Below are positions 8,852 through 59,543 of a stretch of 64,000 nucleotides of DNA, piece after piece. Position 1 is the stretch's first letter. Every line of letters starts with the position of its first letter. Origin of the DNA: an uncultured Pseudoxanthomonas sp. GTDB lineage: Bacteria > Pseudomonadota > Gammaproteobacteria > Xanthomonadales > Xanthomonadaceae. Below the pieces are notes generated by a model. That model searched no databases, had not been told where the DNA came from, and saw only the letters and a list, made by a program, of their open reading frames with translations. The stretch covers positions 1-64,000 of the forward strand of contig CAMLGZ010000024.1 in assembly GCA_946479745.1 (NCBI GenBank), in the 5' to 3' direction. Made by a program: the position numbers and the translations under genes.

Positions 8852-8867
8852 CGTGGGGTTCTCCATG

Positions 8868-15181: not shown

Positions 15182-15223
15182 AAAAACAGTGCGTGAGCCG
15201 AGGCCGCAGCATAGGTGGCGGTG

Positions 15224-15447: not shown

Positions 15448-15458
15448 CGCCATCGGAC

Positions 15459-40853: not shown

Positions 40854-40897
40854 AAGAGGCCCATCGACGAATTGGTCAGGCCTCGCATCTTGAACCT

Positions 40898-40923
40898 AGT
40901 GACCATATTAGTCAATAGTCACT
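40898..40923. promoter_or_regulatory. TetR-type operator between regulator and efflux genes
   Basis: Arms AGTGAC and GTCACT flank CATATTAGTCAATA, just upstream of the adaptor gene and after the TetR gene. The inner TTAGTC also occurs in the inverted repeat at 41603-41624 upstream of the TetR gene, so both are probably bound by that TetR protein. Confidence 0.6.
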
Positions 40924-40945
40924 ATCTCTGAATTGTGGAGCTAAA

Positions 40946-41563
40946 TTATGGCGACAGGCTGCGGAGTACCAGACCGGACAACTTCGCCGGCGCCTCGTCC
41001 GTGTATTCAAAGCTGTGCTGCAGGAGCAGGGGGTTGAGATAAGGGCGCATGACCAGGTAAATCGCCATCGAGGTTTCATCAATCGGCGTTTTGCGCTCGA
41101 AATCCCCTGTCAGCCTGCCTTCCTGCAAGATGTCCTGGAGCAATTTCTGAATGCGTTCTTCATAGGCAACCACGGCCTGCCAGCGCTCGCTGGCCGCTGA
41201 ACTGGCGATTTCGTAAAGCTTACGATCCCGGAAAAACAGACGCATGCTGGCCTCTACCGCAGTTTTGAACATCCGCCGCAGCTTCTCGGGTGGTCGTTCA
41301 GTTTCGTCAACGGCTGCCCTGATCTCGGTTTCGATCTCGCGCAGGCAGTTCGCGCAGATCATCTCGCCAATAGCCTGCTTGGACGGGAAGAACTTGTAGA
41401 TGTAGGCCTTGGAAAAGCCAATGGCCTTGGCCAGATCGGAGACGGCGGTCTTCTCGTAGCCATACCGGCTGAAGTGCTCGGTGGCCGCGGTAACGATCTG
41501 ATCGCGCACCTCATGATCGGCCGGACCGCGGGCCGAAACGGGATAAGTGGTGGTTTTTTTCAT
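40946..41563 (-). CDS. TetR-family repressor of the efflux operon
   Basis: A 205-residue TetR regulator with the helix-turn-helix IVTAATEHFSRYGYEKTAVS and DLAKAIGFSKAYIYKFFPSK. TetR genes directly upstream of adaptor-pump pairs commonly repress them. Matching inverted repeats upstream of both the regulator (41603-41624) and the adaptor (40898-40923) support this. The C-terminal half is presumably the ligand-binding domain. Confidence 0.86.
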   Translation of the reverse strand: MKKTTTYPVSARGPADHEVRDQIVTAATEHFSRYGYEKTAVSDLAKAIGFSKAYIYKFFPSKQAIGEMICANCLREIETEIRAAVDETERPPEKLRRMFKTAVEASMRLFFRDRKLYEIASSAASERWQAVVAYEERIQKLLQDILQEGRLTGDFERKTPIDETSMAIYLVMRPYLNPLLLQHSFEYTDEAPAKLSGLVLRSLSP

Positions 41564-41917
41564 GGTTGGAGCTTACCTTTTGCTCCGCAGACATACAACG
41601 AATGACTATTTCATATATTAGTCACTTCATTTCCGGTTCAAGTCTGGAAGAAGTGCGTGCCTCGCAAACGCACCCTGCATGTTCATTGTCGTAAGCGGCA
41701 TAACGGCTGAAGTGACGGCCCCGACTCGCCCCTCAACGCGCGCGCCGGGTTCGAGATCCCGATTTCGGATCAGGCTTCGTGATGTCCGCGATTGGCTTGC
41801 GGATTCAATCGATCGACGCAACAGAGATAGCCCGCCACGGCGTAATGAGCCTGTCGCTGCGCTCTTCGCCAGCTCGCAAGCGCCATCGCTGCGTCTCCCG
41901 CTGTTATGGAACGATTG
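41564..41917. other. Intergenic region upstream of the efflux regulator
   Basis: About 350 nt between the TetR gene and the Gfo/Idh/MocA gene on the same strand. It contains the operator-like repeat at 41603-41624; I see nothing else of note. Confidence 0.5.
41603..41624. promoter_or_regulatory. TetR-type operator upstream of the efflux repressor
   Basis: TGACTA and TAGTCA arms are separated by TTTCATATAT, 40 nt upstream of the TetR start. It is related to the repeat at 40898-40923 (common TTAGTCA half). The A/T-rich spacer is a likely -10 region. Confidence 0.6.
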
Positions 41918-43075
41918 CTACGAGGCGACGGGCACCCAGGCCGCACCTTGTCGCGCGCTGGCCACCGCGGCCTCGATGAAGGCCATGCCGGCGACGCCGT
42001 CGTCGATGCCGGGAAGATCGAGATCATCCGGCGGCGGCTCGCCAGCGACTTCCGCGGCGATCGCACGGAAAGCTTCGCGGTACAGGTTGGCGAAGGCCTC
42101 CAGATAGCCTTCCGGATGCCCGGCCGGTATCCGCGTGACGCGTTGCGCGACTTCGCCGACATAGCCGTTGCCGCGGCGCAGGATTTCGCGCGGGCGGTCC
42201 GGGTATTTGACGATCAACTCGTTGGGATGTTCCTGCTGCCACTCCAGCGAGGCCTCGCTGCCGTACACGCGCAGGCTCAAGCCGTTCTCTTCGCCCACCG
42301 CGATCTGCGAGCTGTGCAGCACGCCGCGCGCGCCGCCTTCGAAGCGCAGCAGCAGATTGCCGTCATCGTCCAGGCGCCGGCCGGGCACGAAGGTGGTGAG
42401 TTCTGCGCACAGTTCGGCAATGCGCAAGCCGGTGACGTAGCGCGCCAGGTTTTCCGCGTGCGTGCCGATGTCGCCCATGCACCCGGCCGCGCCGCTGCGC
42501 GCCGGGTCGGTGCGCCACGAGGCCTGCTTGTGGCCGCTGCTTTCGATATCGCTCGCCAGCCACCCTTGCGAATACTCCACCACCACCTTGCGCAGCGCGC
42601 CGAGTGCACCGCCACGCACCAGCGCGCGCGCCTGTTTCACCATCGCATTGCCGGTGTAGTTGTGGGTCAGCACGAACACCTTTCCGCTGCGCGCGACCGT
42701 CTCGCGCAAGGCACGCGCCTCGGCCAGCGTCAACGTGACCGGCTTGTCGCAGACCACGTTGAAGCCGTGCTCCAGGAACAGCGTCGCGGCCGGGAAATGC
42801 TGGTCGTTCGGGGTGACGATCACCACGAAGTCCAGCCGTTCGCCGGACGGGCGCGCCGCCTCGGCAACCGCCATGTCGCGATAGCTGCCGTACGCGCGTT
42901 CGGCGGACACGAACAGGTCGGCCGCCGAATCGCGCGAGCGCTGCGGATCCGATGAGAACGCGCCGGCGACGAGTTCGGCCTGCCCGTCCATCTGCGCGGC
43001 AATCCGGTGCACGGCACCGATGAATGCGCCACGCCCGCCGCCGACCATACCGAAGCGCAGCTTGCGTCCGGTCAC
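41918..43075 (-). CDS. Gfo/Idh/MocA-family oxidoreductase
   Basis: Cytoplasmic NAD(P)-dependent sugar dehydrogenase of 385 residues. [20 protein letters not shown] is the nucleotide-binding fold, [20 protein letters not shown] holds the conserved EKP-like Lys motif (here DKP), and [16 protein letters not shown] includes the Asp-x-x-x-His active-site motif. The start is GTG 43075 in a 4-nt GTGA overlap with the TIM-barrel gene. This pairing is found in pathways that interconvert sugars and 3-keto or inosose-type intermediates. I infer that it reduces or oxidises a 3-keto sugar imported from the periplasmic modules next door. Confidence 0.82.
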
Positions 43076-44124
43076 GCCATCCCCCCGCGCCCGCGGCCCT
43101 CGAAAGCCGCGTCGAACGCCACCGCGCTGGGCGGAAAATCGAGCTGGCGCACGAAGGCCGCAGCCTCGGTGGCGCCGTGCACGCGATCCATGCGCGCGTC
43201 CTCCCATTCCACCGACAGCGGGCCGCGATAACCGATGTCGTTCAACGCAACGATGATGTCCTGGAAGCGAACGTCGCCACGCCCGACCGAGCGGAAGTCC
43301 CAATTGCGGCGTGCGTCGCCGAAGTCGGTATGGCCGCCGAACACGCCCACGCTGCCGTCGCCGCGCCCCCACCACACGTCCTTCATGTGGACGTTGAAGA
43401 TGCGCTCGCCGAAGGTGCGCAGGAAACGGATGTAATCCACACCCTGGTAGGCGAAGTGCGAGGGATCGAAATTGAAGCCGAAGCGCGGGTGGTGATCGAC
43501 CGCTTCCAGTGCGCGCTGCGCGCTGGCGATGTCGAACGCGATCTCGGTGGGATGCACTTCCAGGGCGAAGTTCACGTTGAACGCGTCGAAGGCGTCGAGA
43601 ATCGGCCGCCAGCGCCGCGCGAAATCATCGAAGCCCTGCTGCAGGTAGGCTTGCGAAGTCGGCGGGAAGGCGTAGACCGCGTGCCAGATCGACGAGCCGG
43701 TGAAGCCGGTGACCGTCGCCGGGGAACCGATCGCCGCCGCGCCCGGCCGCGCATCGAAGAACGCGCGCGCGGCTTTGGCCGTGTCGATCATCCGCGCGGC
43801 GGCGCGCTGGCGTACGCCTTCCGGCTCGCCGTCGCCCCAGATCTCGGGCGGCAGGATCGCGCGATGACGCTCGTCGATCAGGTCGCAGACCGCCTGCCCG
43901 ACCAGATGGTTGGCGATTGCGTGACAGCTCAATCCCTGCGCTTGCAGCACGCCCCAGCGCTGATGCACGTAGTCCGGCGAAGCCAGCGCACGTTCGACAT
44001 CGAAGTGATCGCCCCAGCACGCCAGTTCCAGACCGTCGTAGCCCATGGCAACGGTCTGCTTGGCGAGTTCGTCGAGCGAGAGGTCGGCCCATTGCCCGGT
44101 GAAGAGCACGACAGGACGTGGCAT
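43072..44124 (-). CDS. Sugar phosphate isomerase/epimerase-like TIM barrel, cytoplasmic
   Basis: A 350-residue AP_endonuc_2/xylose-isomerase-like barrel without export signal. Metal-ligand motifs are [13 protein letters not shown] (Glu), [13 protein letters not shown] (Asp, His), [12 protein letters not shown] (His) and [11 protein letters not shown] (Glu). Such proteins include hexose epimerases and 3-keto-glycoside lyase subunits. It forms a two-gene unit with the Gfo/Idh/MocA dehydrogenase. GGAG is upstream of the ATG. Activity on 3-keto sugars is inferred from the adjacent GMC and DUF1080 genes. Confidence 0.82.
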
Positions 44125-44264
44125 ATGCGAAGACTCCTGAATTGTCAGGCCCTGCTCCGCGATGGAGCTGAGCGTTGGAACGTAAAGATCACTAGTTCTT
44201 GTGTCTCGCTTGGGTCGTCAGGAAATATGGTTGAGATCCAGGCAATAGCATGCAGAGCGTCATG

Positions 44265-45290
44265 TCAGAGGATCTTGATTTCCTTCAGCCATCCGAGTGC
44301 ATCAACAGTCCACCTGTCAGTGTCTTTGCCTTGCTTCTTGACTCCAAAAGCATGACCGCCGGTTTGATAGAGCATGAGCTTCACGTTTACTCCAGCCTTC
44401 TTCAATTCTCTTTCATACACTTTCGAATAATGAACCGGATCGACCGGATCGTCTTCGGCGTGTATGAGCAGAGTTGGTGGTATGTCCGTTGATATCTCAA
44501 TGTCGGTATTCAGCTCTTGTGCTGCAATTGCTGTTGGAGTTTTGTTTTTGTGCTCCATCGTCAAGTGCCCTGGATAGACAGGTATCGCGAAGTCGGGGCG
44601 ACTGCTCACTTGATCGATTTCATCAATGGGGTCATATGCGCGCTTTTTAAAAGCTGTGCTGGAAAGAACGGCCAAATTCCCACCAGCCGAAAACCCCATA
44701 ACGCCAATTTTATCCGGATCTATATTGTATTTCTTTGAGTTGTATCGAACGATGGAAATCGTCCTTTGAGCGTCTTGCAGCGCCATTGGAATATCCGGCG
44801 TATCGTGCTTGCGGGTTTTTGCGTTCCAATTACACCCGGAATTGGGAACTCGATACTTCAAAAGTATGCAGGTGACGCCCGCGTCGGTCAGCCACTTGCA
44901 TACATCTGCACCGTTGAATCCGATCGTGCTTTTCCGGCCAATCGCAACGCCTTTGTAGCCACCCCCTGGAAAGACGACAATGGCCGCTCGAGCGGAATAA
45001 TTTTTGGGGGCGTAAAGTAGAAATGCAGGATGGGTAATGACGAGCTGAGGGTTGTTTCTAGCTTCCTCGTCATTGGCGATTATCTTGATCCCCTCCTCCA
45101 AAACTTTGGATCCTTCCGGCCATAGCGGTACTTCCTGTGAATAACTCGGCGCAAGCGAAGAATCCGCAGAGGTGCCTCCCGATTGCGTCTGCCTGCCAAT
45201 GGCGCTGTCTATCGAAGGTCGTTCGCCGCTTGAGGCAAAAATGACCAGTAGAAAGACAACGTTCAGAGTGGGGAGACGGAAGGGATACAT
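44265..45290 (-). CDS. Exported alpha/beta-hydrolase, acetylxylan-esterase-like; A/T-rich gene
   Basis: A 341-residue hydrolase of the BD-FAE/esterase type. The signal-like leader LPTLNVVFLLVIFASSG is followed by EVPLWPEGSK, AAIVVFPGGGYKGVAIGRKS (oxyanion), GVMGFSAGGNLAVLSS (nucleophile Ser), LLIHAEDDPVDP (Asp) and TGGHAFGVKKQG (His). This pattern matches carbohydrate acetylesterases often found beside glycan-degrading genes. It stands out by composition: sampled lines are 35-47% G+C, against ~65-75% in the neighbours, with codons such as AAT, AAA and TTT common. Recent horizontal acquisition is likely. It has AGGA before the ATG. Confidence 0.85.
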   Translation of the reverse strand: MYPFRLPTLNVVFLLVIFASSGERPSIDSAIGRQTQSGGTSADSSLAPSYSQEVPLWPEGSKVLEEGIKIIANDEEARNNPQLVITHPAFLLYAPKNYSARAAIVVFPGGGYKGVAIGRKSTIGFNGADVCKWLTDAGVTCILLKYRVPNSGCNWNAKTRKHDTPDIPMALQDAQRTISIVRYNSKKYNIDPDKIGVMGFSAGGNLAVLSSTAFKKRAYDPIDEIDQVSSRPDFAIPVYPGHLTMEHKNKTPTAIAAQELNTDIEISTDIPPTLLIHAEDDPVDPVHYSKVYERELKKAGVNVKLMLYQTGGHAFGVKKQGKDTDRWTVDALGWLKEIKIL

Positions 45291-45357
45291 CTTGCGTTGC
45301 GTCCTTGGACGTGTGTAATTTTGAGGGCTTATCAGCAGGACCTAACTAGGGACCTGA

Positions 45358-46542
45358 TCATGCATCGACGCGTTCGATGCGATAGCCGCCGCGGGCGCGG
45401 TCGACCCAATGGACGACGCCGAAGATCAATGCGATCGCGATCGGCAGCACCGCCCATACCGGCAACACGTGCGCGGCGCCGTAGGTATTGTTGATCCAGC
45501 CCATGACCGGGCCAGCCACCGCGGTCGAGAACGCGCCGGCGGCGCCGACCGCCGCCAGCGCCAGCGCACCGCCGCGGGGGAAGCGCTCGGAGGTCAGCCC
45601 CAGCATCGTCGGCCACCAGAACGCGGTGCCCACCGCGAGCAATGCCGCGGCGGCGAACGCCAGTACCGGCGTATCGGCACGCCCGAACAGCCACAACCCG
45701 AGCGCCGCGATCGGCGCCGTCACCGCGATCAGCGTCACCGGCGAGAGCCGATGCGCAAGGCCCCCGCCGAACTGTCGCAGCGCGTACATGATGCCGTTGA
45801 TCCACACCAGCAGCAGTACGCCGGCCTGCAGCGTACTGTGCATGACCTCGTTGAAGATGTTGCTGACCCATTGCCCCGGGCCGAGCTCGGTGGCAGCGGT
45901 CAACCACATGCAGGCGAACACCACCAGGAACAGCGGGCGCTTGAGTTCGCTGTACATGGCAGCGGTGGAAACGCCCGCCGCCTTGCGTTCGGTGTCGGGA
46001 AAACGCTGGGCGAAGAACATCGCCGCGTAGATCGCCGACGGCACCAGCATCAACAGCATCTTGGCCTGCCAGCCCAGGCCGAGCTGGGTGAAGCCGAAGG
46101 CGAGTACGCCGCCGATTACGATGCCGCCCGGGAACCAGGCATGCAGCTTGACCAGCCGTGCGGTCTTGTTTTCGCGATACAGCGTGGCGATGAGCGGATT
46201 GATGCCGGCCTCGACGAAGCCATTGGCGATGCCGATGACCACGGTGGCCGCGAACAGCATGGTGAAATCGGTGGCGAACACGGTGAGCAGCACGCCTGCG
46301 ATATGCCCCACTGCCGCCAGTTTCAACAGCCGCCCCATGCCCAGCAGATCGCACAGTGTGCCGCCGAACAGGATCGACAGGCCGAAGCCCCAGAACGCGG
46401 CGCCGCTGATCCAGCCCAACTGGATCTTGTCGAGCCCGAACGCGAGCTCCAACTCGCCCATGATGTCGCCGCGGATGGCGAAGGACATCGCGGTGGCCAA
46501 CAGAGCGATGCAACTGGCGACAAACAGGCGCTGCGGGTTCAT
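45358..46542 (-). CDS. MFS transporter, probably sugar or keto-sugar uptake
   Basis: A 394-residue, 12-helix major facilitator protein. IQLGWISGAAFWGFGLSILF and GGTLCDLLGMGRLL show the first-loop GxxxD/R region. PVMGWINNTYGAAHVLPVWA lies in the C-terminal half. It follows the DUF1080 gene by 27 nt, in an operon with GMC, small subunit and TIM barrel genes. I infer that it carries the product of the periplasmic oxidation and cleavage system to the cytoplasmic dehydrogenase. A ribosome site (GCGGAG) precedes the ATG. Confidence 0.85.
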   Translation of the reverse strand: MNPQRLFVASCIALLATAMSFAIRGDIMGELELAFGLDKIQLGWISGAAFWGFGLSILFGGTLCDLLGMGRLLKLAAVGHIAGVLLTVFATDFTMLFAATVVIGIANGFVEAGINPLIATLYRENKTARLVKLHAWFPGGIVIGGVLAFGFTQLGLGWQAKMLLMLVPSAIYAAMFFAQRFPDTERKAAGVSTAAMYSELKRPLFLVVFACMWLTAATELGPGQWVSNIFNEVMHSTLQAGVLLLVWINGIMYALRQFGGGLAHRLSPVTLIAVTAPIAALGLWLFGRADTPVLAFAAAALLAVGTAFWWPTMLGLTSERFPRGGALALAAVGAAGAFSTAVAGPVMGWINNTYGAAHVLPVWAVLPIAIALIFGVVHWVDRARGGYRIERVDA

Positions 46543-46569
46543 AGGTTTCTCCGCGGAGGGATCAATGCT

Positions 46570-47256
46570 TCAGGGCAACACACGAATCTTGATGTTGCGG
46601 TAACGCACTTCGCTGTCCGGATCGTGCGCCTGCAGCGCGAAGGTGCCCGAGGATAGCACCCGGCCACTCATGTCGGCCGGCCGCTCCGGTTGCTTCGGCT
46701 GCGTGTAGTCGACGATCGGTTTGTCGTCGACGAAGGTGCGGATGCGGCGACCCTCGACGCGGATGCGCAGTGTGAACCAGACATCGTCCTTGGCCGGTGC
46801 CTGATAGTTGTCCTTGACCGCATACAGGCCGCCGGTGCGCTTGGGATCGCTCTGGCTGTTGTTGACCTGCACTTCATAGCCTTTGGCCGGCCAACCCTCG
46901 TCCTGCCAGGCGGTATGGAAGTAGACGCCGGAATTGGCGCCAGGGCTGGTCATGACTTCGAGCTGCAATTCGAAGTTGCGGAAATCGTGACGATCCACTG
47001 CGCCAACGTAGTACAGATGCGAACGCGGACCCCGCACCACGATCGCGCCGTCGTGCACGCTGAACGAACCCGGCGCCTCGCTGGCACGCCAGCCGTCCAG
47101 CGTCTTGCCGTCGAACAACGACTGCCAGTCGTGGCGTGCCTGTTCTGCAGCGGCATGTTCTGTAGTTGCCTGTTCCATGGCTGCATGTTCTGCAGCGTGC
47201 GCGCTCATGCCACTGGCCAGTGCCAGCAGGCAGGCGCCGAGTAAACGAATGTACAT
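46570..47256 (-). CDS. DUF1080 (3-keto-disaccharide hydrolase family) protein, exported, module 1
   Basis: A 228-residue protein with a signal peptide (LGACLLALASGMSAHA) and GGAGG before ATG 47256; the longer open frame upstream is not protein-like. After the signal is an Ala/Glu/His/Gln microrepeat (AEHAAMEQATTEHAAAEQA). The mature domain is the DUF1080 jelly-roll: WQSLFDGKTLDGWRASEAPG, NSGVYFHTAWQDE, KGYEVQVNNSQSD, VWFTLRIRVEG. DUF1080 proteins include hydrolases and lyases of 3-keto-glycosides made by GMC-type dehydrogenases. Its place in the GMC operon supports that role. Confidence 0.85.
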   Translation of the reverse strand: MYIRLLGACLLALASGMSAHAAEHAAMEQATTEHAAAEQARHDWQSLFDGKTLDGWRASEAPGSFSVHDGAIVVRGPRSHLYYVGAVDRHDFRNFELQLEVMTSPGANSGVYFHTAWQDEGWPAKGYEVQVNNSQSDPKRTGGLYAVKDNYQAPAKDDVWFTLRIRVEGRRIRTFVDDKPIVDYTQPKQPERPADMSGRVLSSGTFALQAHDPDSEVRYRNIKIRVLP

Positions 47257-47380
47257 GCGATAGGTCCTCCAGGTAGACCGGCGCACCGCCGGCATGGATC
47301 GGCACGATGCCGCAGTCGGCGTGAGTGTCATGCTCATTGCGGCCCCGCTCATGGCGGCACGCGACGCGTGACCGGCGGCA

Positions 47381-48004
47381 TCAGCCCACTCCCACGAGTT
47401 TGAGCACTTCCGAAGGCGGACCGTCGAAACTAGCCAATGGCACGTTGCCGACATAGCCCAGGTATTGCCGGCCTTGCGGCGATGTGCAGAACCCGCCGAT
47501 AGTCAGGTCGCGGTAACGGGCGAAGAATTCCGCGGCCTGTTTGAATTCGGCGCGTGCCTTGGGCAGATAGCAGATGTCGTCGCAGATCGCGCCGCGCTGG
47601 CTCGCGCTCGACTCGCCGAAGCTGCGCGAAAAGCGCTGCTCCGCCTGCGCATCCAGCCAGTCGAATCCGGCCAGGATCTGCTTGCGGTCGGCGACCTGCT
47701 GCGGATATGGCGCGCTGACCCATTCGTTGATGAAATCCACCACACCGACCGCGACTGCGCCCGGCGCACCCGCATCGGCCGGAACGATCAGGTCGCACAG
47801 CGCGGCAGCGATGCGCCGCTGCCGTTCGTCCAGCGTCAGCGGCCAGATCGAACCGGGTCCGTAGACTTTCAGCAGGTCCGGGTCGGTGCCGTAGCCCACG
47901 CCCGAAGGCAGCTTGGGCAGCTGCTCGGAACTGCAACCGGTCAGTTGCATCAACGGCAGCGCGGCAGCGCTCAACATCCACTTCAGCGAAGTGCGGCGGT
48001 CCAT
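47381..48004 (-). CDS. Gluconate 2-dehydrogenase subunit 3-like Tat lipoprotein, module 1
   Basis: Small subunit partner of the GMC oxidoreductase, 207 residues. The leader MDRRTSLKWMLSAAALPLMQ has twin arginines, followed by LTGCSS with a lipobox, so the GMC partner (no signal of its own) is probably exported as a hitchhiker complex. LTLDERQRRIAAALCDLIVP and GVVDFINEWVSAPYPQQ are subunit-3 family features. Its ATG shares one base with the GMC stop (TGATG), so both are made together. The reaction of the complex is probably C3 oxidation of glycosides. Confidence 0.87.
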   Translation of the reverse strand: MDRRTSLKWMLSAAALPLMQLTGCSSEQLPKLPSGVGYGTDPDLLKVYGPGSIWPLTLDERQRRIAAALCDLIVPADAGAPGAVAVGVVDFINEWVSAPYPQQVADRKQILAGFDWLDAQAEQRFSRSFGESSASQRGAICDDICYLPKARAEFKQAAEFFARYRDLTIGGFCTSPQGRQYLGYVGNVPLASFDGPPSEVLKLVGVG

Positions 48005-49809
48005 CAAAGCTCCTTGCGGCGCATGCGCGCCAGCATATGGTCGGAGGCGCGCCAGGCCAGCGCCATGATCGTCAGCGTCGGGTTCTTGTCGGCATTGGAG
48101 GCGAAGACTGCACCGTCGGTGATGTAGAGATTGTCCACATCCCAGGTGCGGCACCACCGATCCGTGACCGAGGTCTTCGGATCGGCGCCCATGATCGCGC
48201 CGCCCAGTTCATGGATGATCGAACCGCCGGGGTCGATGGCCTTGGCGCCGTCGGTTTCCACCTTGCCCTGCACGCGCCCGCCCATCGCCTCGATGATTTC
48301 GGCGAAGGTGCGTTGCATGTGCGCGGCCTGGCGTGTCTCGTGTTCGGACCACTGCCAGTGGAAGCGCAGCACCGGGATGCCCCACTTGTCCTTCACCTGC
48401 GGGTCGATCTCGCAGTACGAATGCTCGTTCGGAATCATCTCGCCGCGGCCGGCGAAGCCGACGAAGGAACCGTAGTAGCGACGCACGTCTTCCTTGAACT
48501 TCTGCCCGTAGCTGCCGCCGGTGAGCCATTCCAGCCCGGCCCCGGTATTCAGGCCGGGCATGCGCCGGCCGCCGCCGAACTCGATGTGGTAGCCGCGTGC
48601 GAAACCGAGCTTGCCCGCCAGTTGCTCCTGATAGAGCCACCACGGCGAATACATGTGACCGCCGTCGGCGCCATCCTCGTTGTGCAGCGGCAGGTTCTCC
48701 AGCAACGGCACCTGCCCGGTCAGGTCGGTGCCGACGGTGTCCATCAGATAGCGGCCGACCTTGCCGCTGGAGTTGGCCAGACCGTCGGGAAACGACGTGG
48801 ATTTGGAGTTGAGCAGGATCCGCGCCGTTTCACAGGCGCTGGCCGCGAGTACCACCACGCGCGCGGAGGCTGCGAATTCCTTGCCGCTGGTCCTGTCGAT
48901 GAAGCGCACGCCGTCGGCCTTGCCGTTCGCGCCCAGCATCACCTCGCGCACCATGGCATCGCAGACGATGTCCAGCCGGCCGGTCGCCAGCGCCGGCGGC
49001 AGATGCACGGTGGTCGACTGGTAGTTGGCTCCGGTCGAGCAGCCGCGACCGCAGGGCGTCGCCCACCAGCAGGCTGCGCGGCGCAGCATCGACTCGCGCA
49101 GGATGCGCTGCGCCTCCGGGTTGCCCGGATGCAGCTTGGCCGGCAGGTTGTCCGCATCCAGGCGCCGGGTCAGCACCGCGCGGTGGCCGGCAACCACGGG
49201 AACGCCCAGGCGCCCGGCGCGCTGCTGCACCAGCAGGTCGCTGACCCTGGGCTTGGGCGGCGGCAGCAATATGCCGGCAGGCGAATCGGGCGTGTTCTCC
49301 AGGCCGTCGTTGTCGCCGTACACGCCGATCAGCATCTCGACCTTGTCGTAGTACGGCGCCACATCGGCGTAGCCGATCGGCCAGTCGAAACCCAGGCCGT
49401 CGCGGCTGTAGGGCTTGAAATCGTAGGCGCCGTTGCGCAGCGAGATCCGGCCCCAGTGATTGGTGCGGCCGCCGAGCATGCGCGCGCGCCACCAGTCGAA
49501 CCGGCCGGCATGATCCTCGCGCGCGTTGACGTAGGGCTCGCCGGGCACCTGCCAGCCGCCGTCGATGGTGGCGTCGTAGAAACCGAACGCCTTTTCCGGT
49601 GTCGAGGTACCGCGCAGCGGCGCCTGGTCCGGGGTCTGGAACATCGGGGTTTCGCTCGCCGGCGTGTAGTTGCGCCCGGCTTCCAGCATCAGCACCCTGG
49701 CACCTTCCATGCACAGCGTGTAGGCGGTCTGGCCACCGGCGGCGCCGGAGCCCACCACGATCACGTCATACGATTGTTTTTTGATGTCGCCCGCAGTTAT
49801 GAAAGCCAC
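48004..49809 (-). CDS. GMC-family FAD oxidoreductase, module 1 (probable glycoside 3-dehydrogenase)
   Basis: A 601-residue flavoenzyme. The FAD fold is VIVVGSGAAGGQTAYTL at ~16-32. MLGGRTNHWGRISLRNGAYD is a conserved GMC segment, and the C-terminal active-site region contains IIHELGGAIMGADPKTSVTD (His) and ASNADKNPTLTIMALAWRAS (Asn). It starts with GTG 49809, 4 nt after the TIM-barrel stop, and couples to the small subunit gene. With that subunit it resembles LacA/LacB-type glucoside 3-dehydrogenases. Substrate specificity is not visible. Confidence 0.87.
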   Translation of the reverse strand: MAFITAGDIKKQSYDVIVVGSGAAGGQTAYTLCMEGARVLMLEAGRNYTPASETPMFQTPDQAPLRGTSTPEKAFGFYDATIDGGWQVPGEPYVNAREDHAGRFDWWRARMLGGRTNHWGRISLRNGAYDFKPYSRDGLGFDWPIGYADVAPYYDKVEMLIGVYGDNDGLENTPDSPAGILLPPPKPRVSDLLVQQRAGRLGVPVVAGHRAVLTRRLDADNLPAKLHPGNPEAQRILRESMLRRAACWWATPCGRGCSTGANYQSTTVHLPPALATGRLDIVCDAMVREVMLGANGKADGVRFIDRTSGKEFAASARVVVLAASACETARILLNSKSTSFPDGLANSSGKVGRYLMDTVGTDLTGQVPLLENLPLHNEDGADGGHMYSPWWLYQEQLAGKLGFARGYHIEFGGGRRMPGLNTGAGLEWLTGGSYGQKFKEDVRRYYGSFVGFAGRGEMIPNEHSYCEIDPQVKDKWGIPVLRFHWQWSEHETRQAAHMQRTFAEIIEAMGGRVQGKVETDGAKAIDPGGSIIHELGGAIMGADPKTSVTDRWCRTWDVDNLYITDGAVFASNADKNPTLTIMALAWRASDHMLARMRRKEL

Positions 49810-49813
49810 GGCG

Positions 49814-50734
49814 TCACGCTTTCAGATGGCGAAGATAATCGAAACTCAGCTTCACGCTTTCCAACGGCGCCCGTTCGAAATTCTCCTGCTCCACGAAGTA
49901 ATGGCGGATGCGCTGCGGATCCATGGCCGCGAACAGTTTTGGCCAGTCCACGCGGCCATTGCCGACCTCGGTGGTCTGGGTATCGACGCGATCGACAACC
50001 GTTTTCGCATCCTTGCGCACGTCCTTGATGTGCAGGGACGAAATCCGATCCGCATGGCGCGTGAGGAGCCGTAGCGGATCGGCGCCGGCAGCGGTGACCC
50101 AGCCGATGTCGAGTTCCATCGTCACAAGCCTGGCATCGGTCAGCCGCAGCAGTTCGTCATATGCCGTCACGCCGTCGTAGGAGCGGAACTCCATGTTGTG
50201 GTTGTGGTAGCCGCAGGCGATGCCCGCCTTGTGCGTGAGCTCGCCGATGCGGTTCAGCTGCTCCGCATTCCATTTCCAGTCGTCCAGGGTCATGCCGGCC
50301 GCCAGCGCGTTGCCGTCCTTGAAACGCTCATCGGCGGTCGACGGAAACGAGATCACGAGGTACCGCGAGCCGATTGCCTGCGCGTAGTCGATGCGTTGCT
50401 GCAGGTCCTTCTGCGCATCGGCCATGCCGCAGTGCATGCTGGGAGCGGCCAGGTCGTTGTCCCGAAGCATGGCCCGCACTTCGGCGGCGGACTGCTTCGG
50501 CACGCCTGCGAACTCGATCTCGCCATAGCCGATCGCGCTAACTGCCTTCAAGGCGGCCGCAAGGTCCTTCGCGACCTCGTCCCGGATCGTCCACAACTGC
50601 AGCCCGACCGGCTTGTTCAAAGGCCCGAGCTTTTTTGGGAGCATGGGGTGCGGTGTCGCGGCAAAAGCATTGAGGGAAGTCATCGCGGCAAGCGCCATTG
50701 AGCTGTGTTGAAGAAACGCACGTCGGGTCAACAT
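49814..50734 (-). CDS. Tat-exported sugar phosphate isomerase/epimerase-like TIM barrel
   Basis: A 306-residue xylose-isomerase-like barrel that begins with a clear twin-arginine signal (MLTRRAFLQHSSMALAAMTS). Metal motifs include IACGYHNHNMEFRSYDGVTA, VTMELDIGWVTAAGADPLRL, ISSLHIKDVRKDAK and HYFVEQENFERAPLESVKLS. Export via Tat means the barrel folds with its metal before secretion and works in the periplasm, unlike the paralogue at 43072-44124. It is the first gene of the minus-strand 3-keto-glycoside module and begins 30 nt from a tandem repeat array. A periplasmic 3-keto-glycoside lyase or epimerase role is inferred. Confidence 0.84.
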   Translation of the reverse strand: MLTRRAFLQHSSMALAAMTSLNAFAATPHPMLPKKLGPLNKPVGLQLWTIRDEVAKDLAAALKAVSAIGYGEIEFAGVPKQSAAEVRAMLRDNDLAAPSMHCGMADAQKDLQQRIDYAQAIGSRYLVISFPSTADERFKDGNALAAGMTLDDWKWNAEQLNRIGELTHKAGIACGYHNHNMEFRSYDGVTAYDELLRLTDARLVTMELDIGWVTAAGADPLRLLTRHADRISSLHIKDVRKDAKTVVDRVDTQTTEVGNGRVDWPKLFAAMDPQRIRHYFVEQENFERAPLESVKLSFDYLRHLKA

Positions 50735-50763
50735 TGTGTTCCCTTGCCCCTTTAGGGTTGCCT

Positions 50764-50829
50764 CTATATAAGAAAGTATCCGGACCTATATAAGAAAGTA
50801 TCCGGACCTATATAGGAAAATACCCGGAC
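50764..50829. repeat. Three tandem 22-bp repeats between divergent GMC modules
   Basis: Units at 50764-50785, 50786-50807 and 50808-50829. The first two are identical and begin CTATATAAGAAAGTATC; the third differs at three positions (CTATATAGGAAAATACC). Every unit ends CGGAC. The array lies between the divergent starts at 50734 and 50969. The 22-bp spacing places copies on one face of the helix, and TATATA could serve as overlapping promoters. I infer an operator array for one regulator controlling both modules. Confidence 0.85.
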
Positions 50830-50968
50830 CGAACTCAACGAACAATGCTGCATCGCGACAACGCATTCGCGTCGTCCATCGCTCGAGAGTCTCCTCGACC
50901 GGCGTCTCGATGTTACCGTCTTTTTCGCGGTAGAGTCCGTGATCAAGTTGGCTTGAGGAAGCGCAAGT

Positions 50969-52654
50969 ATGGCGGCCGAGAACAATTCCTTTGACGCAAT
51001 CGTGGTCGGCACCGGCATCAGCGGGGGGTGGGCCGCAAAAGAGCTGACCGAGAAGGGATTGAAAACCCTGGTGCTCGATCGCGGGCGGATGGTGGAGCAT
51101 GGCGAGTACCCCACCGCGAACCTGCAGCTCTGGGAACTTCCCTACGGCGGCCGTCCCACGCAACAGGATATCGAGAAGCAATCGGTCGCCAAACGCGGCG
51201 GCGTGCTCTCGCAAGCGACCAAGCACTGGTTCGTCAACGATATCGATCATCCCTACATCGAGAAGAAACCTTTCGCCTGGGTGCGCGGCTATCACGTCGG
51301 CGGCCGTTCCATCATGTGGGGCAGGCAGTCGTACCGCTGGAGTCCGATGGACTTCGAGGCGAATGCGAAAGAAGGCGTCGCCGTGGACTGGCCCCTCCGC
51401 TACGAGGAGCTCGCGCCGTGGTACGACCACGTGGAGAGTTTCATCGGCGTGAGTGGCCAGGCGGAAGGCTACGAGCAACTGCCGGACGGCAAGTTCCTGC
51501 CGCCGATGGCGTTGAATTGCGTCGAACTGCACCTCAAGCAGGCGCTTGCCGACAAGCTGGGCCGCGCAATGACCATCGGCAGGACCGCCAATCTCACCGC
51601 GCCGCTCGCGCACAGCCCGCAGCGCGGCACCTGCCAGTATCGCAATCTGTGCTGGCGCGGTTGTCCGTTCGGGGCGTACTTCAGCAGCAACTCCAGCACG
51701 CTGCCTGCGGCGGAGAAGACCGGAAACATGACGCTGCGTCCCAATTCGATCGTCTACGAGCTCATCCATGACGCGAAGAACGACCGGGCCAGCGGCGTGC
51801 GCGTACTGGATGCGGAAACCAACGAGCAGATGGAATTCCACGCCAAGGTGATCTTCCTGTGCGCGTCCACGTTCGGTTCCACGCAGATCCTGATGAATTC
51901 CGTCTCCAGCCGGTTTCCGGAGGGTTTCGGCAACGACAGCGGCGAGCTCGGCTGCAACATCATGGACCATCACCTGGGCGTCGGCGCCTCCGCGGTCGTC
52001 GAAGGCTTCGAAGACCAGTACTACAGCGGCCAGCGGCCCAACGGCATCTATATTCCGCGATTCGTCAATATCGGCAAAGACAAGCGCTCCTACCTGCGCG
52101 GTTTCGGTTACCAGGGCGGCGCGGGCCGGGCAGGATGGACCCGGCTGCTCGAAGATTCCACGCTGGGCGCGGATCTGAAGACGAAGGCCGCACAGCCCGG
52201 GCCGTGGGGCGTGGGGTTGGGCGGTTTCGGCGAAACCCTTCCCTATCACGACAATCGCGTCACGATCGATCGCACCCGCAAGGACAAGCATGGGCTGCCC
52301 GTGCTGGCGTTCGATGCGGCGATGCGCGAGAACGAACTGAAGATGCGCCAGGACATGGCGGCCGAGGCCGCAACGATGCTGGAAGCCGCGGGATACAAGA
52401 ATGTCCATTCGTACGATGGCGGCGACGAGCTGGGCATGGGCATCCATGAGATGGGCACCGCGCGCATGGGGCGGGATCCGGAAACCTCCGTGCTCAACGC
52501 CTGGAACCAGGTGCACGCCTGCAAGAACGTGTATGTCACCGATGGTTCCTGCATGACCTCCTCGGCGTGCCAGAACCCCTCGCTCACGTACATGGCGTTG
52601 ACAGCGCGCGCCGCGGACCACGCCGTCCAGGAACTGAAGCGGATGAACCTATGA
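50969..52654 (+). CDS. GMC-family FAD oxidoreductase, module 2
   Basis: A 561-residue flavoenzyme, second copy of the GMC type. SFDAIVVGTGISGGWAAKEL is the FAD fold; YHVGGRSIMWGRQSYRWSPM and CQYRNLCWRGCPFGAYFSSN are conserved landmarks; the C-terminus has GMGIHEMGTARMGRDPETSV (His) and SSACQNPSLTYMALTARAAD (Asn). It has no signal peptide; export would rely on the Tat lipoprotein encoded next (4-nt overlap). GAGGAAG precedes the ATG. The two GMC proteins are clearly diverged, suggesting different substrates. Confidence 0.88.
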   Translation: MAAENNSFDAIVVGTGISGGWAAKELTEKGLKTLVLDRGRMVEHGEYPTANLQLWELPYGGRPTQQDIEKQSVAKRGGVLSQATKHWFVNDIDHPYIEKKPFAWVRGYHVGGRSIMWGRQSYRWSPMDFEANAKEGVAVDWPLRYEELAPWYDHVESFIGVSGQAEGYEQLPDGKFLPPMALNCVELHLKQALADKLGRAMTIGRTANLTAPLAHSPQRGTCQYRNLCWRGCPFGAYFSSNSSTLPAAEKTGNMTLRPNSIVYELIHDAKNDRASGVRVLDAETNEQMEFHAKVIFLCASTFGSTQILMNSVSSRFPEGFGNDSGELGCNIMDHHLGVGASAVVEGFEDQYYSGQRPNGIYIPRFVNIGKDKRSYLRGFGYQGGAGRAGWTRLLEDSTLGADLKTKAAQPGPWGVGLGGFGETLPYHDNRVTIDRTRKDKHGLPVLAFDAAMRENELKMRQDMAAEAATMLEAAGYKNVHSYDGGDELGMGIHEMGTARMGRDPETSVLNAWNQVHACKNVYVTDGSCMTSSACQNPSLTYMALTARAADHAVQELKRMNL

Positions 52655-53286
52655 AGACCGACCTCAACCGCCGCGAAGCGATACGCCGCGTCGCCTTGCT
52701 GATGGGCGGCGCCGTTTCGGCGCCGGCTATCCTTGGCGTGCTCGCTGGCTGCTCGGCCGAGCCGGGCACGGATAAGGATGCCGAATGGAAGCCCACATTC
52801 CTCACCCAGGCGCAGGTCGGGCTGGTGGCGGAAGTCGCCGAGATCATGATTCCCCGCACCGATACTCCGGGCGCGAAGGATGTCGGTATTCCGGCCTTCA
52901 TAGACAAGATGTTGAAGGATGCCTATCCGAAAGAGGAGCAGGCGCGCTTCGTCGCGGGACTCGTGGACTTCGAAACCCGGGCCAAGCGCGAACACGGGCG
53001 CACCTTCCTTGAGCTGGAACCGGCGCTGCGCGCGGCGCTGGTGAAACAGGTGCATGACCCGGCGGTCGAGGTGGATCGAGCGTCGGACCTTCCCGTCGCC
53101 GAGCGGGGCCGTCCTTTCATCCTCATGACTAAAGAGCTCACGTTGCTCGGCTATTTCATGTCCGAACCCGGCGCCACGGAGGTGTTGCAGTACCGCCCGG
53201 TTCCGGGTGCGTATCACGCGTGCGTTCCGCTGAAGCAGGCAGGGAAAGGCAAGACTTGGGCCACCGAGGTCAGCTACCGATTCTGA
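52651..53286 (+). CDS. Gluconate 2-dehydrogenase subunit 3-like Tat lipoprotein, module 2
   Basis: A 211-residue small subunit. The leader NRREAIRRVALLMGGAVSAP carries twin arginines, followed by LGVLAGCSAE with a lipobox. VGLVAEVAEIMIPRTDTPGA and FIDKMLKDAYPKEEQARF fit the subunit-3 family. Its ATG overlaps the GMC stop (ATGA). It likely anchors and co-exports the module 2 GMC enzyme and passes electrons to the respiratory chain. It is the counterpart of 47381-48004. Confidence 0.87.
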   Translation: MKTDLNRREAIRRVALLMGGAVSAPAILGVLAGCSAEPGTDKDAEWKPTFLTQAQVGLVAEVAEIMIPRTDTPGAKDVGIPAFIDKMLKDAYPKEEQARFVAGLVDFETRAKREHGRTFLELEPALRAALVKQVHDPAVEVDRASDLPVAERGRPFILMTKELTLLGYFMSEPGATEVLQYRPVPGAYHACVPLKQAGKGKTWATEVSYRF

Positions 53287-53343
53287 TCCCCAATGGGCAG
53301 CAGCGGCCAGCGCAGCAGCCTCACATATCGACAGGACTGATGG

Positions 53344-54252
53344 ATGAATTCGAATTCCAGACTCATCGCGCGATCCGGCTGCTGCGCGCTCCTTCTCGCC
53401 TCGCTGTTCGCGGGCGAGGTGGCGGCGGACACTCCTGCCGAGAAGGAGGAATGGATCGCGCTGTTCAACGGCCGCGATCTCGACGGGTGGACACCGAAGA
53501 TCGCCGGTCACGCGTTGGGGGACAACTTCGCAAACACATTCCGTGTCGAAGACGGGCTGCTCAAGGTGCGCTACGACCGGTACGAGTCCTTCGGCAAGAA
53601 GTTCGGCCACCTCTTCTACAAGGATCCGTTTTCCTACTATCGCCTGGTGGTGGAATACCGCTTCGTCGGTGAGCAGGCGCCGCATGGCCCCGGGGACTGG
53701 GCCTTGCGCAACAGCGGCGCGATGCTGCATTCGCCGCATCCGCGCACGATGGGGCGCGATCAGGACTTTCCCATTTCCATCGAGGTGCAGTTCCTCGGCG
53801 GCCTGAGCGACGGCAAGGCGCGCTCGACCATGAACCTGTGCACGCCGGGAACGGAGGTCGTGTATCAGGGTTCGATCTATCCCGAGCATTGCCTCAACTC
53901 CGCTTCCAAGACCTTCGACGGCGACCAGTGGGTCCGCGCCGAGGTGCTGGTACTGGGCAGCGGACAGATCACCCATTTCGTCAATGGCGAGGAAGTGCTG
54001 GAGTATGCGTTGCCTCAGTTCGGCGGTGGCGCCGTGTCGGATTTCGATCCCGCCGCCAAGCCTGATGGGAAACTGATCGAAGGCGGCTACATTTCGCTGC
54101 AGAGCGAATCGCATCCGATCGACTTCCGCAAGGTGGAACTGCTCAACCTTGCCGGCTGCATGGACCGCAGCGCAAGCAATTACAAGCGCTACCACGTCAA
54201 ATCGGTGCCTGAAAGCTGTGTCTATGCGAAAGGCTCGAAACCCGAAAAATAG
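53344..54252 (+). CDS. DUF1080 (3-keto-disaccharide hydrolase family) protein, exported, module 2
   Basis: A 302-residue exported protein with leader LIARSGCCALLLASLFAGEV. WIALFNGRDLDGWTPKIAGH opens the DUF1080 domain; LVVEYRFVGEQAPHGPGDWA, MLHSPHPRTMGRDQDFPISI and EVQFLGGLSDG continue it. The Glu in SIEVQFLGG aligns in position with that in YEVQVNN of the module 1 protein. The C-terminal ~40 residues, with a Cys in NLAGCMDRSASNYKRY, are an extra. It lies 57 nt after the small subunit in the same operon. The two DUF1080 proteins differ in length and probably in substrate. Confidence 0.85.
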   Translation: MNSNSRLIARSGCCALLLASLFAGEVAADTPAEKEEWIALFNGRDLDGWTPKIAGHALGDNFANTFRVEDGLLKVRYDRYESFGKKFGHLFYKDPFSYYRLVVEYRFVGEQAPHGPGDWALRNSGAMLHSPHPRTMGRDQDFPISIEVQFLGGLSDGKARSTMNLCTPGTEVVYQGSIYPEHCLNSASKTFDGDQWVRAEVLVLGSGQITHFVNGEEVLEYALPQFGGGAVSDFDPAAKPDGKLIEGGYISLQSESHPIDFRKVELLNLAGCMDRSASNYKRYHVKSVPESCVYAKGSKPEK

Positions 54253-54667
54253 CACCGGCATTGTTCATGAACTGCTGATCCGTGGTGGCGACGCCGCAAG
54301 TCCGGTACGGTTCTCAGCCGGCATCCTGGCTCACTGCAGTTCGTTACCCGGGATCGCGGTCGACGGCGCCCGATGGGTCGACTGCGCTGAAACCCTCTTC
54401 TGCACGTATGGGCTTGAACACCTCTGGAATCCGGAGCGATTCATTCGAGAGAGCACTCCGTCCTCCTATCCGCTTACGGAATGGCAGGCGTTCAATATTT
54501 CATTGGTCGAATCGGGTCGGTCAGGGGAAGCTTGACGCAGACATCCCGACTTCTGACGCTTGCCGCGCCGCCGTCCCATTGCTCCTCGCAATCGGTCGCC
54601 ATCCGCAAGAACATCCAGACGGATAGCCCCGGGAATCGGCGATAGAAGTTTTCCGGAGGAGAGAAGC
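54253..54667. other. Promoter region of the GluP-type transporter
   Basis: About 415 nt without a credible gene, holding the 44-nt element at 54466-54509 and the transporter's ribosome site (CCGGAGGAGA). Confidence 0.6.
54466..54509 (+). promoter_or_regulatory. 44-nt regulatory element upstream of the hexose transporter (site D)
   Basis: CGCTTACGGAATGGCAGG, four variable bases, then TCAATATTTCATTGGTCG. It is 38/44 identical to site C upstream of the carboxylesterase and has the same orientation to its gene. It lies 158 nt before the transporter start. The 3' half contains the core shared with sites A, B and E. Confidence 0.68.
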
Positions 54668-55975: not shown

Positions 55976-56037
55976 CGCTGCGTATGGGTTTCCAGAACCA
56001 GGAAAGGCGACAGGCAACATCACGACAAGATCGGCCG

Positions 56038-57375: not shown

Positions 57376-57513
57376 GGGAAGGTGGGAGAGGATCGACGGA
57401 TGGGGGCGAGGTTCAATGAGATGCGCGCAGCACGACGATCGGTTTCGGCAGCAACGCCGGCGCCGAGGAATGGGACGGAGAAGGCTGGGTGATTTAACTG
57501 CCTCCGTCCCTCT

Positions 57514-58547
57514 TCAGGCATCGCGCTCCACCTTGTATTCGATGCGATTCAGGTAGGTCGCTCCCGGCCGCAGGATGGCATCGGGAAACCCGGGGCGGTT
57601 GGGCGCGTCCGGATAGGCCGTCGGCTCCAGGCAAATGCCCCGGCCCAACTGCGGATACTCGAGTTGGTTGCCATCGTAAATCTGCAACCCCGGCTGGTTG
57701 CTGCTCAGGGTCAGGCGGATGCGACTGTGCGGCGAGAACAGCACGGCGCCGGCTCGGTGATCGGACGTCGCCAGGTAATGGTCGTAACCGCCCGCCAGGT
57801 CGAGCTGCGGGTGGTAGCCGGCATCCTCCAGGACGCGGCCATGGCGAAAGTCGAAAGGCGTTCCCGTGACCGATGCGATCTCGCCGGTCGGCAACAACGC
57901 ACTGTCCGCGACCGGAAGGTAGCGGTCGGCCGAAACCTGCAGCCATTGCGCTGACGCGGGAATGGAAGCATCGCCGGCCAGGTTGAAATAGGCGTGGTTG
58001 GTCAGATTCATTGGCGTGGCCGCATCGGTGCTGGCTTGCAGCGTGAGGATCAGCCGCTCGTCGTCGATGCAGAACTCCGCGCGCACCTCGACATTGCCAG
58101 GATAGCCCTCTTCGCCATCCGGCGAGTGGTATCCCAGGCAGAGCCGGTCTTCGCTCGCTGAAAGGACGCGCCAGTGCCGACGTCCGAAGCCAAGCGTGCC
58201 GCCGTGCAGGTGGTGGGGGGATTGGTTGGCACTGAGTTGATGGCGCGTGCCGTTCAGGGTCAACGCGGCGCCGGCGATACGGTTGGCGTAGCGCCCGGCG
58301 ATGACGCCGAGGTAGGCGCTATCGCAAAGATAGGCGTCCACGTCGTCGAAACCCAGGATCAGCTCGGTGCGCTTGCCCGTCGCATCGACATGGCTGAGGC
58401 TGCGCAGGATCGCGCCGTAATCCAGGATCTGCGCACGCAGCCGACCGGTTCCGATGTCGATGGCGTGGATCGGCGTCCCATCCGCTGCTGCTCCCACTCT
58501 CCGTTGCGCCATCGCTGTTCCTGGTTTCAGTCCGTCAGCCGCTGTCA

Positions 58548-58548: not shown

Positions 58549-59543
<995 letters not shown>

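What the first reader, a model, noticed from the sequence alone, without database searches (positions are those of the whole stretch)
41918..54252. Dual divergent periplasmic 3-keto-glycoside system
Seen: two modules each with GMC oxidoreductase, Tat lipoprotein small subunit and exported DUF1080 protein, transcribed away from a shared repeat array. They are joined by an exported TIM barrel, a cytoplasmic TIM barrel, a Gfo/Idh/MocA dehydrogenase, an MFS carrier and an esterase. Known: GMC/subunit-3 complexes oxidise C3 of glycosides, and DUF1080 and TIM-barrel proteins cleave 3-keto-glycosides. Inference: a complete oxidative glycan-cleavage pathway from periplasm to cytoplasm, next to a hydrolytic xyloglucan/galactoside system. 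The divergence of paralogues suggests two substrate classes (for example two anomers or two aglycone types).
Basis: partly seen in the sequence, partly recalled or inferred. Interest (0 to 1): 0.75.

Follow-up and report, generated by a model that had tools for sequence, protein, structure and literature searches.

The report
Twin-dehydrogenase glycoside-splitting gene cluster
A 12-kb gene block in a relative of Xanthomonas carries two different enzyme pairs that probably oxidise sugars attached to other molecules outside the inner membrane, so that partner enzymes can snap the sugar off without ordinary hydrolysis; the chemistry is known, the double design is a new variant.

Summary

They differ at the FAD-linking position: His in 88 of 89 GMCa-type proteins, in none of 19 GMCb-type. 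No cytochrome c gene lies in the block.

A second Lysobacteraceae group also pairs GMCa-type and GMCb-type enzymes, in another layout, with an eliminase-DUF1080 fusion protein.

Substrates and division of labour are untested. New variant of a known kind; moderate interest.

The parts
41900..54282 (.). the whole conserved block (three modules: A = TIMp-GMCa-SUBa-DUFa, B = GMCb-SUBb-DUFb, C = MFS-TIMc-GFO)
   Evidence: blastn block edges against L148, L151, L152, L153; synteny
41918..43075 (-). GFO: cytoplasmic Gfo/Idh/MocA oxidoreductase, proposed 3-keto-sugar reductase
   Evidence: Pfam PF01408/PF22725/PF02894; PDB 3v5n E 4e-121, named only 'Oxidoreductase'; no NCBIfam cut-off reached
43072..44124 (-). 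TIMc: cytoplasmic TIM barrel, proposed 2-hydroxy-3-keto-glycal hydratase
   Evidence: PF01261; PDB 8ro4 '2-hydroxy-3-keto-glucal hydratase' E 2.8e-38 over 8-338; best hit 2zds, of no known pathway, E 4.7e-118
44265..45290 (-). esterase (BD-FAE/Abhydrolase_3): foreign insert, not part of the unit
   Evidence: GC 0.497 and absent in L001, L002, L004, L013; alignment break 44139-45358
45358..46542 (-). MFS carrier, proposed importer of the released keto-sugar
   Evidence: PF07690; 94-97% identical and syntenic in L001, L002, L004, L013
46570..47256 (-). DUFa: exported DUF1080 (PF06439) protein
   Evidence: PF06439 E 5.3e-44; PDB DUF1080 hits incl. 8rr2; start 47256
47381..48004 (-). SUBa: Tat lipoprotein hitchhiker subunit (PF13618)
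   Evidence: PF13618 E 8.2e-22; start 48004, twin-arginine segment and lipobox by reading
48004..49809 (-). GMCa: GMC oxidoreductase with a His at the FAD-linking position, 3Fe-4S-type Cys motif, His/Asn pair
   Evidence: Pfam; motifs GGRTNHWG 113, CWWATPCGRGC 247, His 533, Asn 576; tree
49814..50734 (-). TIMp: Tat-exported TIM barrel, proposed 3-keto-beta-glycoside 1,2-lyase (beta-eliminase)
50764..50830 (.). 3 x 22-bp tandem array, window only
   Evidence: TRF, pattern search 3 matches with 0 expected, absent in seven aligned relatives
50831..50968 (.). rest of the divergent control region, with bases conserved in all eight aligned regions (cores ATG.TGC, ACAAC and CGCG.TAGAGT)
   Evidence: alignment A3; function not tested
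50969..52654 (+). GMCb: GMC oxidoreductase with Met at the FAD-linking position, 3Fe-4S-type Cys motif, His/Asn pair
   Evidence: Pfam; Cys aligned to fructose dehydrogenase; GGRSIMWG 111, CQYRNLCWRGC 222, His 493, Asn 536; 92% relative P0124 labelled 'glucoside 3-dehydrogenase (cytochrome c) catalytic subunit' by JGI
52651..53286 (+). SUBb: Tat lipoprotein hitchhiker subunit (PF13618)
   Evidence: PF13618 E 1.2e-33; start 52651
53344..54252 (+). DUFb: exported, divergent DUF1080 protein with a C-terminal GC..NY..C.Y tail
   Evidence: PF06439 E 3.7e-32; PDB best only E 0.0051; tail pattern in 99 of the best 120 homologues

Best explanation
The block is a self-contained, non-hydrolytic glycoside-utilisation locus. 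(1) Inferred: two GMC/hitchhiker pairs are exported folded by Tat, anchored by their lipoprotein subunits, and oxidise the C3 hydroxyl of a glycoside's sugar in the periplasm; electrons pass from FAD to a 3Fe-4S cluster to a cytochrome c encoded elsewhere. (2) Strongly supported by sequence and fold: TIMp, in the periplasm, removes the aglycone from 3-keto-beta-glycosides by metal-assisted beta-elimination, giving a 2-hydroxy-3-keto-glycal. Inferred: the DUF1080 proteins do the same job on other 3-keto-glycosides, probably alpha anomers or other leaving groups. (3) Inferred: the MFS carrier brings the product in. (4) Supported by sequence: TIMc adds water to give the 3-keto-sugar. (5) Inferred: GFO reduces it to the free sugar. 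The two dehydrogenase modules are old lineages brought together, not a recent duplication; the predicted difference in flavin attachment and the different DUF1080 partners suggest two substrate ranges or working conditions, not a spare copy.
Confidence: 0.75

Rival explanations
1. Only one GMC pair serves the glycoside pathway (GMCb, with module C). GMCa/SUBa oxidises something else, such as a cyclitol or pseudo-sugar, and was joined to the block for another purpose.
For: GMCa relatives (70-74% identical) in nine Opitutae loci sit beside ebo-type genes (TatD, UbiA, DHQ-synthase-like, TIM barrel, phosphodiesterase), and Verrucomicrobiota loci seldom have DUF1080 near (6 of 41). Lysobacter M2-1 (G006) keeps GMCb with TIMc, MFS and GFO and without module A beside them.
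Against: In Pseudomonadota GMCa is near DUF1080 in 31 of 39 loci. It is preceded by the eliminase TIMp and followed by SUBa and DUFa in the window and in L001, L002, L004, L005 and L013 (an extra DUF1080 gene lies between SUBa and DUFa in L004 and L013). M2-1 looks like a reduced form: a 63-bp match to the TIMp start is left beside GMCb, and it still has GMCa-SUBa-DUFa elsewhere.
Confidence: 0.15
2. A cyclitol (inositol-type) catabolic locus: GMCs oxidise inositols, the TIM barrels are IolE-like dehydratases, GFO is an inositol dehydrogenase.
For: NCBIfam lists myo-inosose-2 dehydratase as the best model for both TIM barrels and inositol 2-dehydrogenase among those for GFO.
Confidence: 0.05
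3. The two modules are redundant: same substrates, different expression or redox conditions.
For: Both GMCs carry the same Cys and His/Asn motifs; one cytoplasmic arm lies with both in the block.
Against: 31-36% identity, different FAD-linking residue, strongly diverged DUF1080 partners, and the same two types are paired in a second cluster layout.
Confidence: 0.25

Closest known systems
Agrobacterium tumefaciens GlycDH-OGE-HYD-Gfo operon (PMC10628242; abstract, passages and sections 6, 7, 8, 11, 14 read)
   Same: oxidation, beta-elimination, hydration, reduction; a flavin C3 dehydrogenase (a Tat-pathway signal protein is named with the Rhizobium enzyme), two TIM barrels, one Gfo oxidoreductase
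   Different: here two GMC/hitchhiker pairs, two DUF1080 proteins, an MFS carrier, and an eliminase with a Tat-like signal
Caulobacter crescentus lacABC plus DUF1080 CCNA_01705 (PMC9007349; passages read)
   Same: membrane-bound periplasmic 3-dehydrogenase with a DUF1080 protein proposed to cut the 3-keto product
   Different: one dehydrogenase with three known components; no cytochrome gene in our block; LacA sequence not compared here
3-keto-beta-glucopyranoside-1,2-lyases AL1 and BT1 (PDB 8tcd, 8tct; titles seen; the paper is not held)
   Different: genetic setting: as recalled, those lyases go with Gfo-type dehydrogenases; TIMp sits with GMC-type ones
Burkholderia cepacia FAD glucose dehydrogenase (PMC6719666; abstract, sections 3.1 and 3.2, passages read)
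   Same: GMC catalytic subunit plus Tat hitchhiker, C-x5-C-x3-C, His/Asn pair; GMCa has the FAD-linking His
   Different: BcGDH oxidises the first hydroxyl of glucose and has a three-haem subunit; GMCb has Met at the FAD-linking position; neither protein here has the second Cys that makes the inter-subunit disulfide (by reading)
Single-GMCb clusters of other Lysobacteraceae (L144, L145, L146, L154)
   Same: TIMc-like, TIMp-like, DUF1080 and GMCb-like (58-60%) genes, with GFO-like and MFS genes seen in some
   Different: one GMC pair, and a cytochrome c gene in each of the four

Membership tests
3-keto-O-glycoside beta-eliminase (AtOGE/AL1 type) | TIM barrel with the metal and catalytic residues of AtOGE | tested here: met
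   7 of 7 residues covered by the alignment identical; the eighth (E233, TIMp E282 by offset) lies outside the local alignment but is invariant in A2
3-keto-O-glycoside beta-eliminase (AtOGE/AL1 type) | closest solved folds are such lyases | tested here: met
3-keto-O-glycoside beta-eliminase (AtOGE/AL1 type) | eliminates 3-keto-beta-glucosides | not testable with these tools
   needs enzyme assay
2-hydroxy-3-keto-glucal hydratase (AtHYD type) | sequence relation over the whole barrel | tested here: met
   8ro4, E 2.8e-38, residues 8-338
2-hydroxy-3-keto-glucal hydratase (AtHYD type) | hydratase active-site residues | not tested
   no held paper lists them
DET-type FAD dehydrogenase complex (GMC + hitchhiker + cytochrome) | GMC subunit with His/Asn pair and C-x5-C-x3-C cluster site | tested here: met
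   both window proteins (His/Asn pattern in 87 of 89 GMCa-type and 18 of 19 GMCb-type locus proteins); Cys alignment to fructose dehydrogenase
DET-type FAD dehydrogenase complex (GMC + hitchhiker + cytochrome) | PF13618 Tat hitchhiker next to it | tested here: met
   twin-arginine segment by reading
DET-type FAD dehydrogenase complex (GMC + hitchhiker + cytochrome) | cytochrome c subunit in the locus | tested here: not met
   no CxxCH in any picked window gene, only in one low-scoring 91-aa frame antisense to GFO; no cytochrome profile hit in the window; the rest of the genome is not held
Glucoside 3-dehydrogenase (EC 1.1.99.13, LacA type) | C3 regioselectivity on glycosides | not testable with these tools
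   only a database label on a 92% relative (P0124)
3-keto-disaccharide hydrolase/lyase (DUF1080, PF06439) | PF06439 above the curated cut-off | tested here: met
   DUFa 151 bits, DUFb 112.3 bits, cut-off 26.8
3-keto-disaccharide hydrolase/lyase (DUF1080, PF06439) | fold of solved DUF1080 proteins (DUFb) | tested here: inconclusive
Inositol catabolism (IolE/IolG) | NCBIfam curated cut-offs | tested here: not met
   TIMp 78 and TIMc 42.2 of 290 bits; GFO 55.6 of 355

The most novel reading that the evidence does not exclude
The block is a transferable 'both-anomer' unit: one C3 dehydrogenase type paired with a beta-specific eliminase (TIMp) and the other with alpha-acting DUF1080 lyases, so that nearly any glucosyl or galactosyl linkage can be stripped in the periplasm by one short pathway. 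Lysobacteraceae assembled the two-dehydrogenase design twice from the same two GMC lineages, once as this divergent block and once as a convergent cluster in which eliminase and DUF1080 became a single two-domain protein.
Probability: 0.3. Interest if true: 0.6.

Novelty: new variant of a known kind. Interest (0 to 1): 0.42.

Why it matters
Oxidation-driven glycoside cleavage is a recently recognised alternative to hydrolysis. This block is a compact natural case with two C3 dehydrogenases that do not look interchangeable and two unrelated cleavage folds in one unit, and there is a sister group in which the two cleavage folds are fused. It makes a clear question testable: does the choice of dehydrogenase, or of lyase, set which anomer and aglycone are used? 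It also gives a simple sequence mark (His or Met at the FAD-linking site) that separates the two dehydrogenase lineages.

Tried and rejected
Rejected: the repeat array as a conserved operator. Rejected: the esterase as a pathway enzyme. Rejected: local gene duplication as origin of the two modules. Rejected: tight linkage to the neighbouring hydrolase genes.

Horizontal transfer of the block is only suggestive. Between genera GMCa, MFS and TIMc are more alike than GyrB (Pseudoxanthomonas CF125 against Luteimonas: 92.7, 93.4 and 91.8% against 84.4%), but GMCb only slightly (87.9%). Within Pseudoxanthomonas the excess is small or missing (CF125 against P. sacheonensis: GMCa 96.8, GMCb 98.4, GyrB 98.8%; CF125 against P. 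wuyuanensis: GMCa 94.3, GMCb 88.2, GyrB 92.4%) (cluster proteins, GyrB). The GyrB column is wrong (antisense frames were picked); one search replaces it. A test with window genes as a yardstick failed: malate:quinone oxidoreductase was found in 1 of 8 genomes only, and an efflux pump gave 81-88% in five of eight.

The DUFb fold comparison was inconclusive. DUF1080 metal-site residues were not compared, because no held paper lists them. NCBIfam named none of the ten proteins above a cut-off. Genome searches scored at most three candidates a genome, so further copies may be missed. Of the six genomes with the more distant GMCa type I fetched the region of five (not G169). Homologue counts rest on the best 120 of 8000 scored proteins.

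Literature: the two papers that I recall as most relevant (Nasseri 2024 Nature; Kastner 2024 Angew. Chem.) and the Caulobacter lacABC paper are not held; the alpha preference of a DUF1080 lyase is recalled from one of them. Searches listed no paper that, by title and start of abstract, describes this block in Lysobacteraceae; one listed 20 of 91 and 114 listed 5 of 756. The three papers with both DUF1080 and Xanthomonas concern xanthan or GapMind. Reports outside the held library cannot be excluded.
Full report
What is there. The region holds eleven genes, confirmed by ORF and Pfam analysis. Reading away from the 234-bp gap between TIMp and GMCb, the minus strand gives TIMp (exported TIM barrel), GMCa, SUBa (PF13618), DUFa (PF06439), an MFS carrier, an esterase, TIMc (cytoplasmic TIM barrel) and GFO; the plus strand gives GMCb, SUBb and DUFb. 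GMCa/SUBa and GMCb/SUBb overlap by one and four bases, and TIMc/GFO by four, as in translationally coupled operons. Signals were judged by eye only.

The unit and its edges. Of 80 loci fetched with GMCa (the best 80 of 260), four hold the full order DUFb-SUBb-GMCb | TIMp-GMCa-SUBa-DUFa-MFS-TIMc-GFO: Pseudoxanthomonas CF125, P. sacheonensis, P. wuyuanensis and Luteimonas suaedae. Nucleotide alignment shows one block, window 41900-54282, with sharp ends; the flanks differ from the window's, and only the two sister species share theirs. Two breaks are specific to the window: 44139-45358 (the esterase, GC 0.497, absent in four relatives) and about 50752-50835 (the repeat array). P. wuyuanensis has a different insert at the esterase place, and P. 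wuyuanensis and Luteimonas carry an extra DUF1080 gene between SUBa and DUFa.

Other genomes carry reduced forms. Lysobacter M2-1 has GMCb and SUBb with TIMc, MFS, GFO and another DUF1080 gene, a 63-bp match to the TIMp start beside GMCb, a 169-bp match to the DUFb end, and GMCa-SUBa-DUFa on another contig. Xanthomonas AmX2 has both GMC genes, but TIMp is reduced to its signal segment plus the C-terminal end, DUFb is broken (52 of 187 profile positions matched in the genome search, two frames in the locus), and the cytoplasmic arm is gone from the locus save a 170-bp GFO piece. Lysobacter ISL-50 has module A and GMCb-SUBb, without DUFb and without arm C. G312 has module A only. I read this as an ancestral full block that was later trimmed; that is an inference.

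Distribution. In 395 genomes drawn from the family, GMCb orthologues (88% or more) occur in 7 and GMCa orthologues (80% or more) in 8. A more distant GMCb type (58-61%) occurs in about 80. A more distant GMCa type (51-61% by segment) occurs in 6, each about 2-2.5 kb from a 58-60% GMCb type, in convergent order. So 12 of the 14 GMCa-type loci of this set lie within 5 kb of a GMCb-type gene, in two different layouts; the exceptions are G006 and G312. At most three candidates a genome were scored. Among the 73 loci from outside Lysobacteraceae only one, L011, has a GMCb-type gene in the fetched stretch, though many of these contigs are short. The tree (64 rows, a sample of the GMCa set) puts the distant GMCa type beside all other GMCa rows (100/98 support for its own clade, 99/98 for the others) and its partner GMCb type with the single-cluster type (99/100), apart from the window's GMCb. 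The two pairings therefore probably arose separately. The tree warns of long branches between the GMCa and GMCb halves and is rooted at the midpoint only.

GMC enzymes. GMCa and GMCb types are 31-36% identical. Their nearest solved relatives are fructose and glucose dehydrogenases of the hitchhiker type. All three GMCb cluster cysteines align with cysteines of fructose dehydrogenase, and the C-x5-C-x3-C spacing equals BcGDH Cys212, 218, 222, the 3Fe-4S ligands (PMC6719666 section 3.2). It is present in 89 of 89 GMCa-type and 19 of 19 GMCb-type ORFs counted (the second copies L148-L153 of loci fetched twice were left out, while L006 and L143, the same gene, both count) and in 119 of 120 GMCb homologues. 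A His/Asn motif pair is found in 87 of 89 and 18 of 19. The loop that in BcGDH carries His105, reported as covalently bound to FAD (section 3.1), has His in 88 of 89 GMCa-type proteins (one not matched by the pattern) and in 0 of 19 GMCb-type proteins (15 Met, 3 Leu, 1 Val); of 120 GMCb homologues 88 have Met, 25 another residue that is not His, and 7 were not matched. That this position equals His105 rests on the shared H-W-A-A-S stretch: fructose dehydrogenase, and the residue order (His105, Ala107, Ala108, Ser109) given in PMC6719666. Prediction: covalent FAD in GMCa, non-covalent in GMCb.

Cytoplasmic arm. TIMc is related over its whole length to the solved 2-hydroxy-3-keto-glucal hydratase 8ro4 (E 2.8e-38), although the Streptomyces protein 2zds, of no known pathway, is much closer (E 4.7e-118). 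GFO's best solved relatives are named only as oxidoreductases. In A. tumefaciens the corresponding enzymes are reported to give 3-keto-glucose (preliminary evidence) and then glucose. The MFS step is inferred from synteny.

What argues against. No cytochrome c gene is in the block. Each of the four single clusters with a 58-60% GMCb type has one (L144, L145, L146, L154); the five convergent clusters have none, nor do two loci with 47-50% GMCb types (L147, and L155 of 7.7 kb only). GMCa relatives in Verrucomicrobiota rarely neighbour DUF1080 (6 of 41 loci, against 31 of 39 in Pseudomonadota, or 24 of 32 without the seven Lysobacteraceae loci), and 9 of 41 are followed by ebo-type genes, so the family may oxidise cyclitol-like or other compounds there. 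The counts include short contigs.

Verdict. The chemistry is of a known kind, and one enzyme (TIMp) is assigned with good confidence. The two-dehydrogenase block and its parallel in a second layout are a new variant as far as the listings of the held literature show. Which glycosides it serves is open.

Noticed in passing
L136:5401-7011 and the corresponding genes of L137, L138, L139, L140: Natural fusion of an OGE-like TIM barrel with a DUF1080 domain beside a GMCa-type gene, in 5 of 5 fetched loci.
   Followed up: partly
L065:7516-15730, L070:10001-18220 and seven other Opitutae loci: GMCa-SUBa relatives are followed by ebo-type genes (TatD, UbiA, DHQ-synthase-like, TIM barrel, phosphodiesterase) in 9 of 41 Verrucomicrobiota loci. 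The name rests on the gene order described in a passage of PMC9235831; the TIM barrel is under the Pfam cut-off and the small first gene has no Pfam hit. Two ebo papers searched for GMC and gluconate had neither word. This may name an oxidising step for the unknown ebo metabolite.
   Followed up: partly
L152:1916-2370: In Luteimonas suaedae the block begins about 100 bp after the 3' end of the tmRNA gene, a place where islands often insert (the last point recalled).
   Followed up: no
L013, between the MFS and TIMc genes: P. wuyuanensis has an insert of about 0.5 kb that reads like a Nudix hydrolase (motif recalled) at the place where the window has its esterase.
   Followed up: no
L144, L145, L146, L154: Single-GMCb clusters of other Lysobacteraceae carry a small cytochrome c gene near the TIMp-like gene; the double clusters do not.
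   Followed up: partly
P0067, P0086, P0095: Long relatives of DUFb run on into an esterase-like segment, then into what looks like a shifted frame (by reading, domain not tested).
   Followed up: no
window 314-18587 and 54665-63559: Hydrolase genes on both sides: GH95, GH31, GH35/42-like with DUF5597, SASA, GH2, BNR-repeat protein and TonB receptor far left (about 23 kb from the block); MFS, GDSL esterase, aldose epimerase, esterase, GH42 and GH97 directly right.
   Followed up: partly
window 36045-41563: What reads like an RND efflux operon with two TetR genes (TetR by Pfam; the pump by reading) lies directly left of the block; it is not beside the block in the relatives examined.
   Followed up: no
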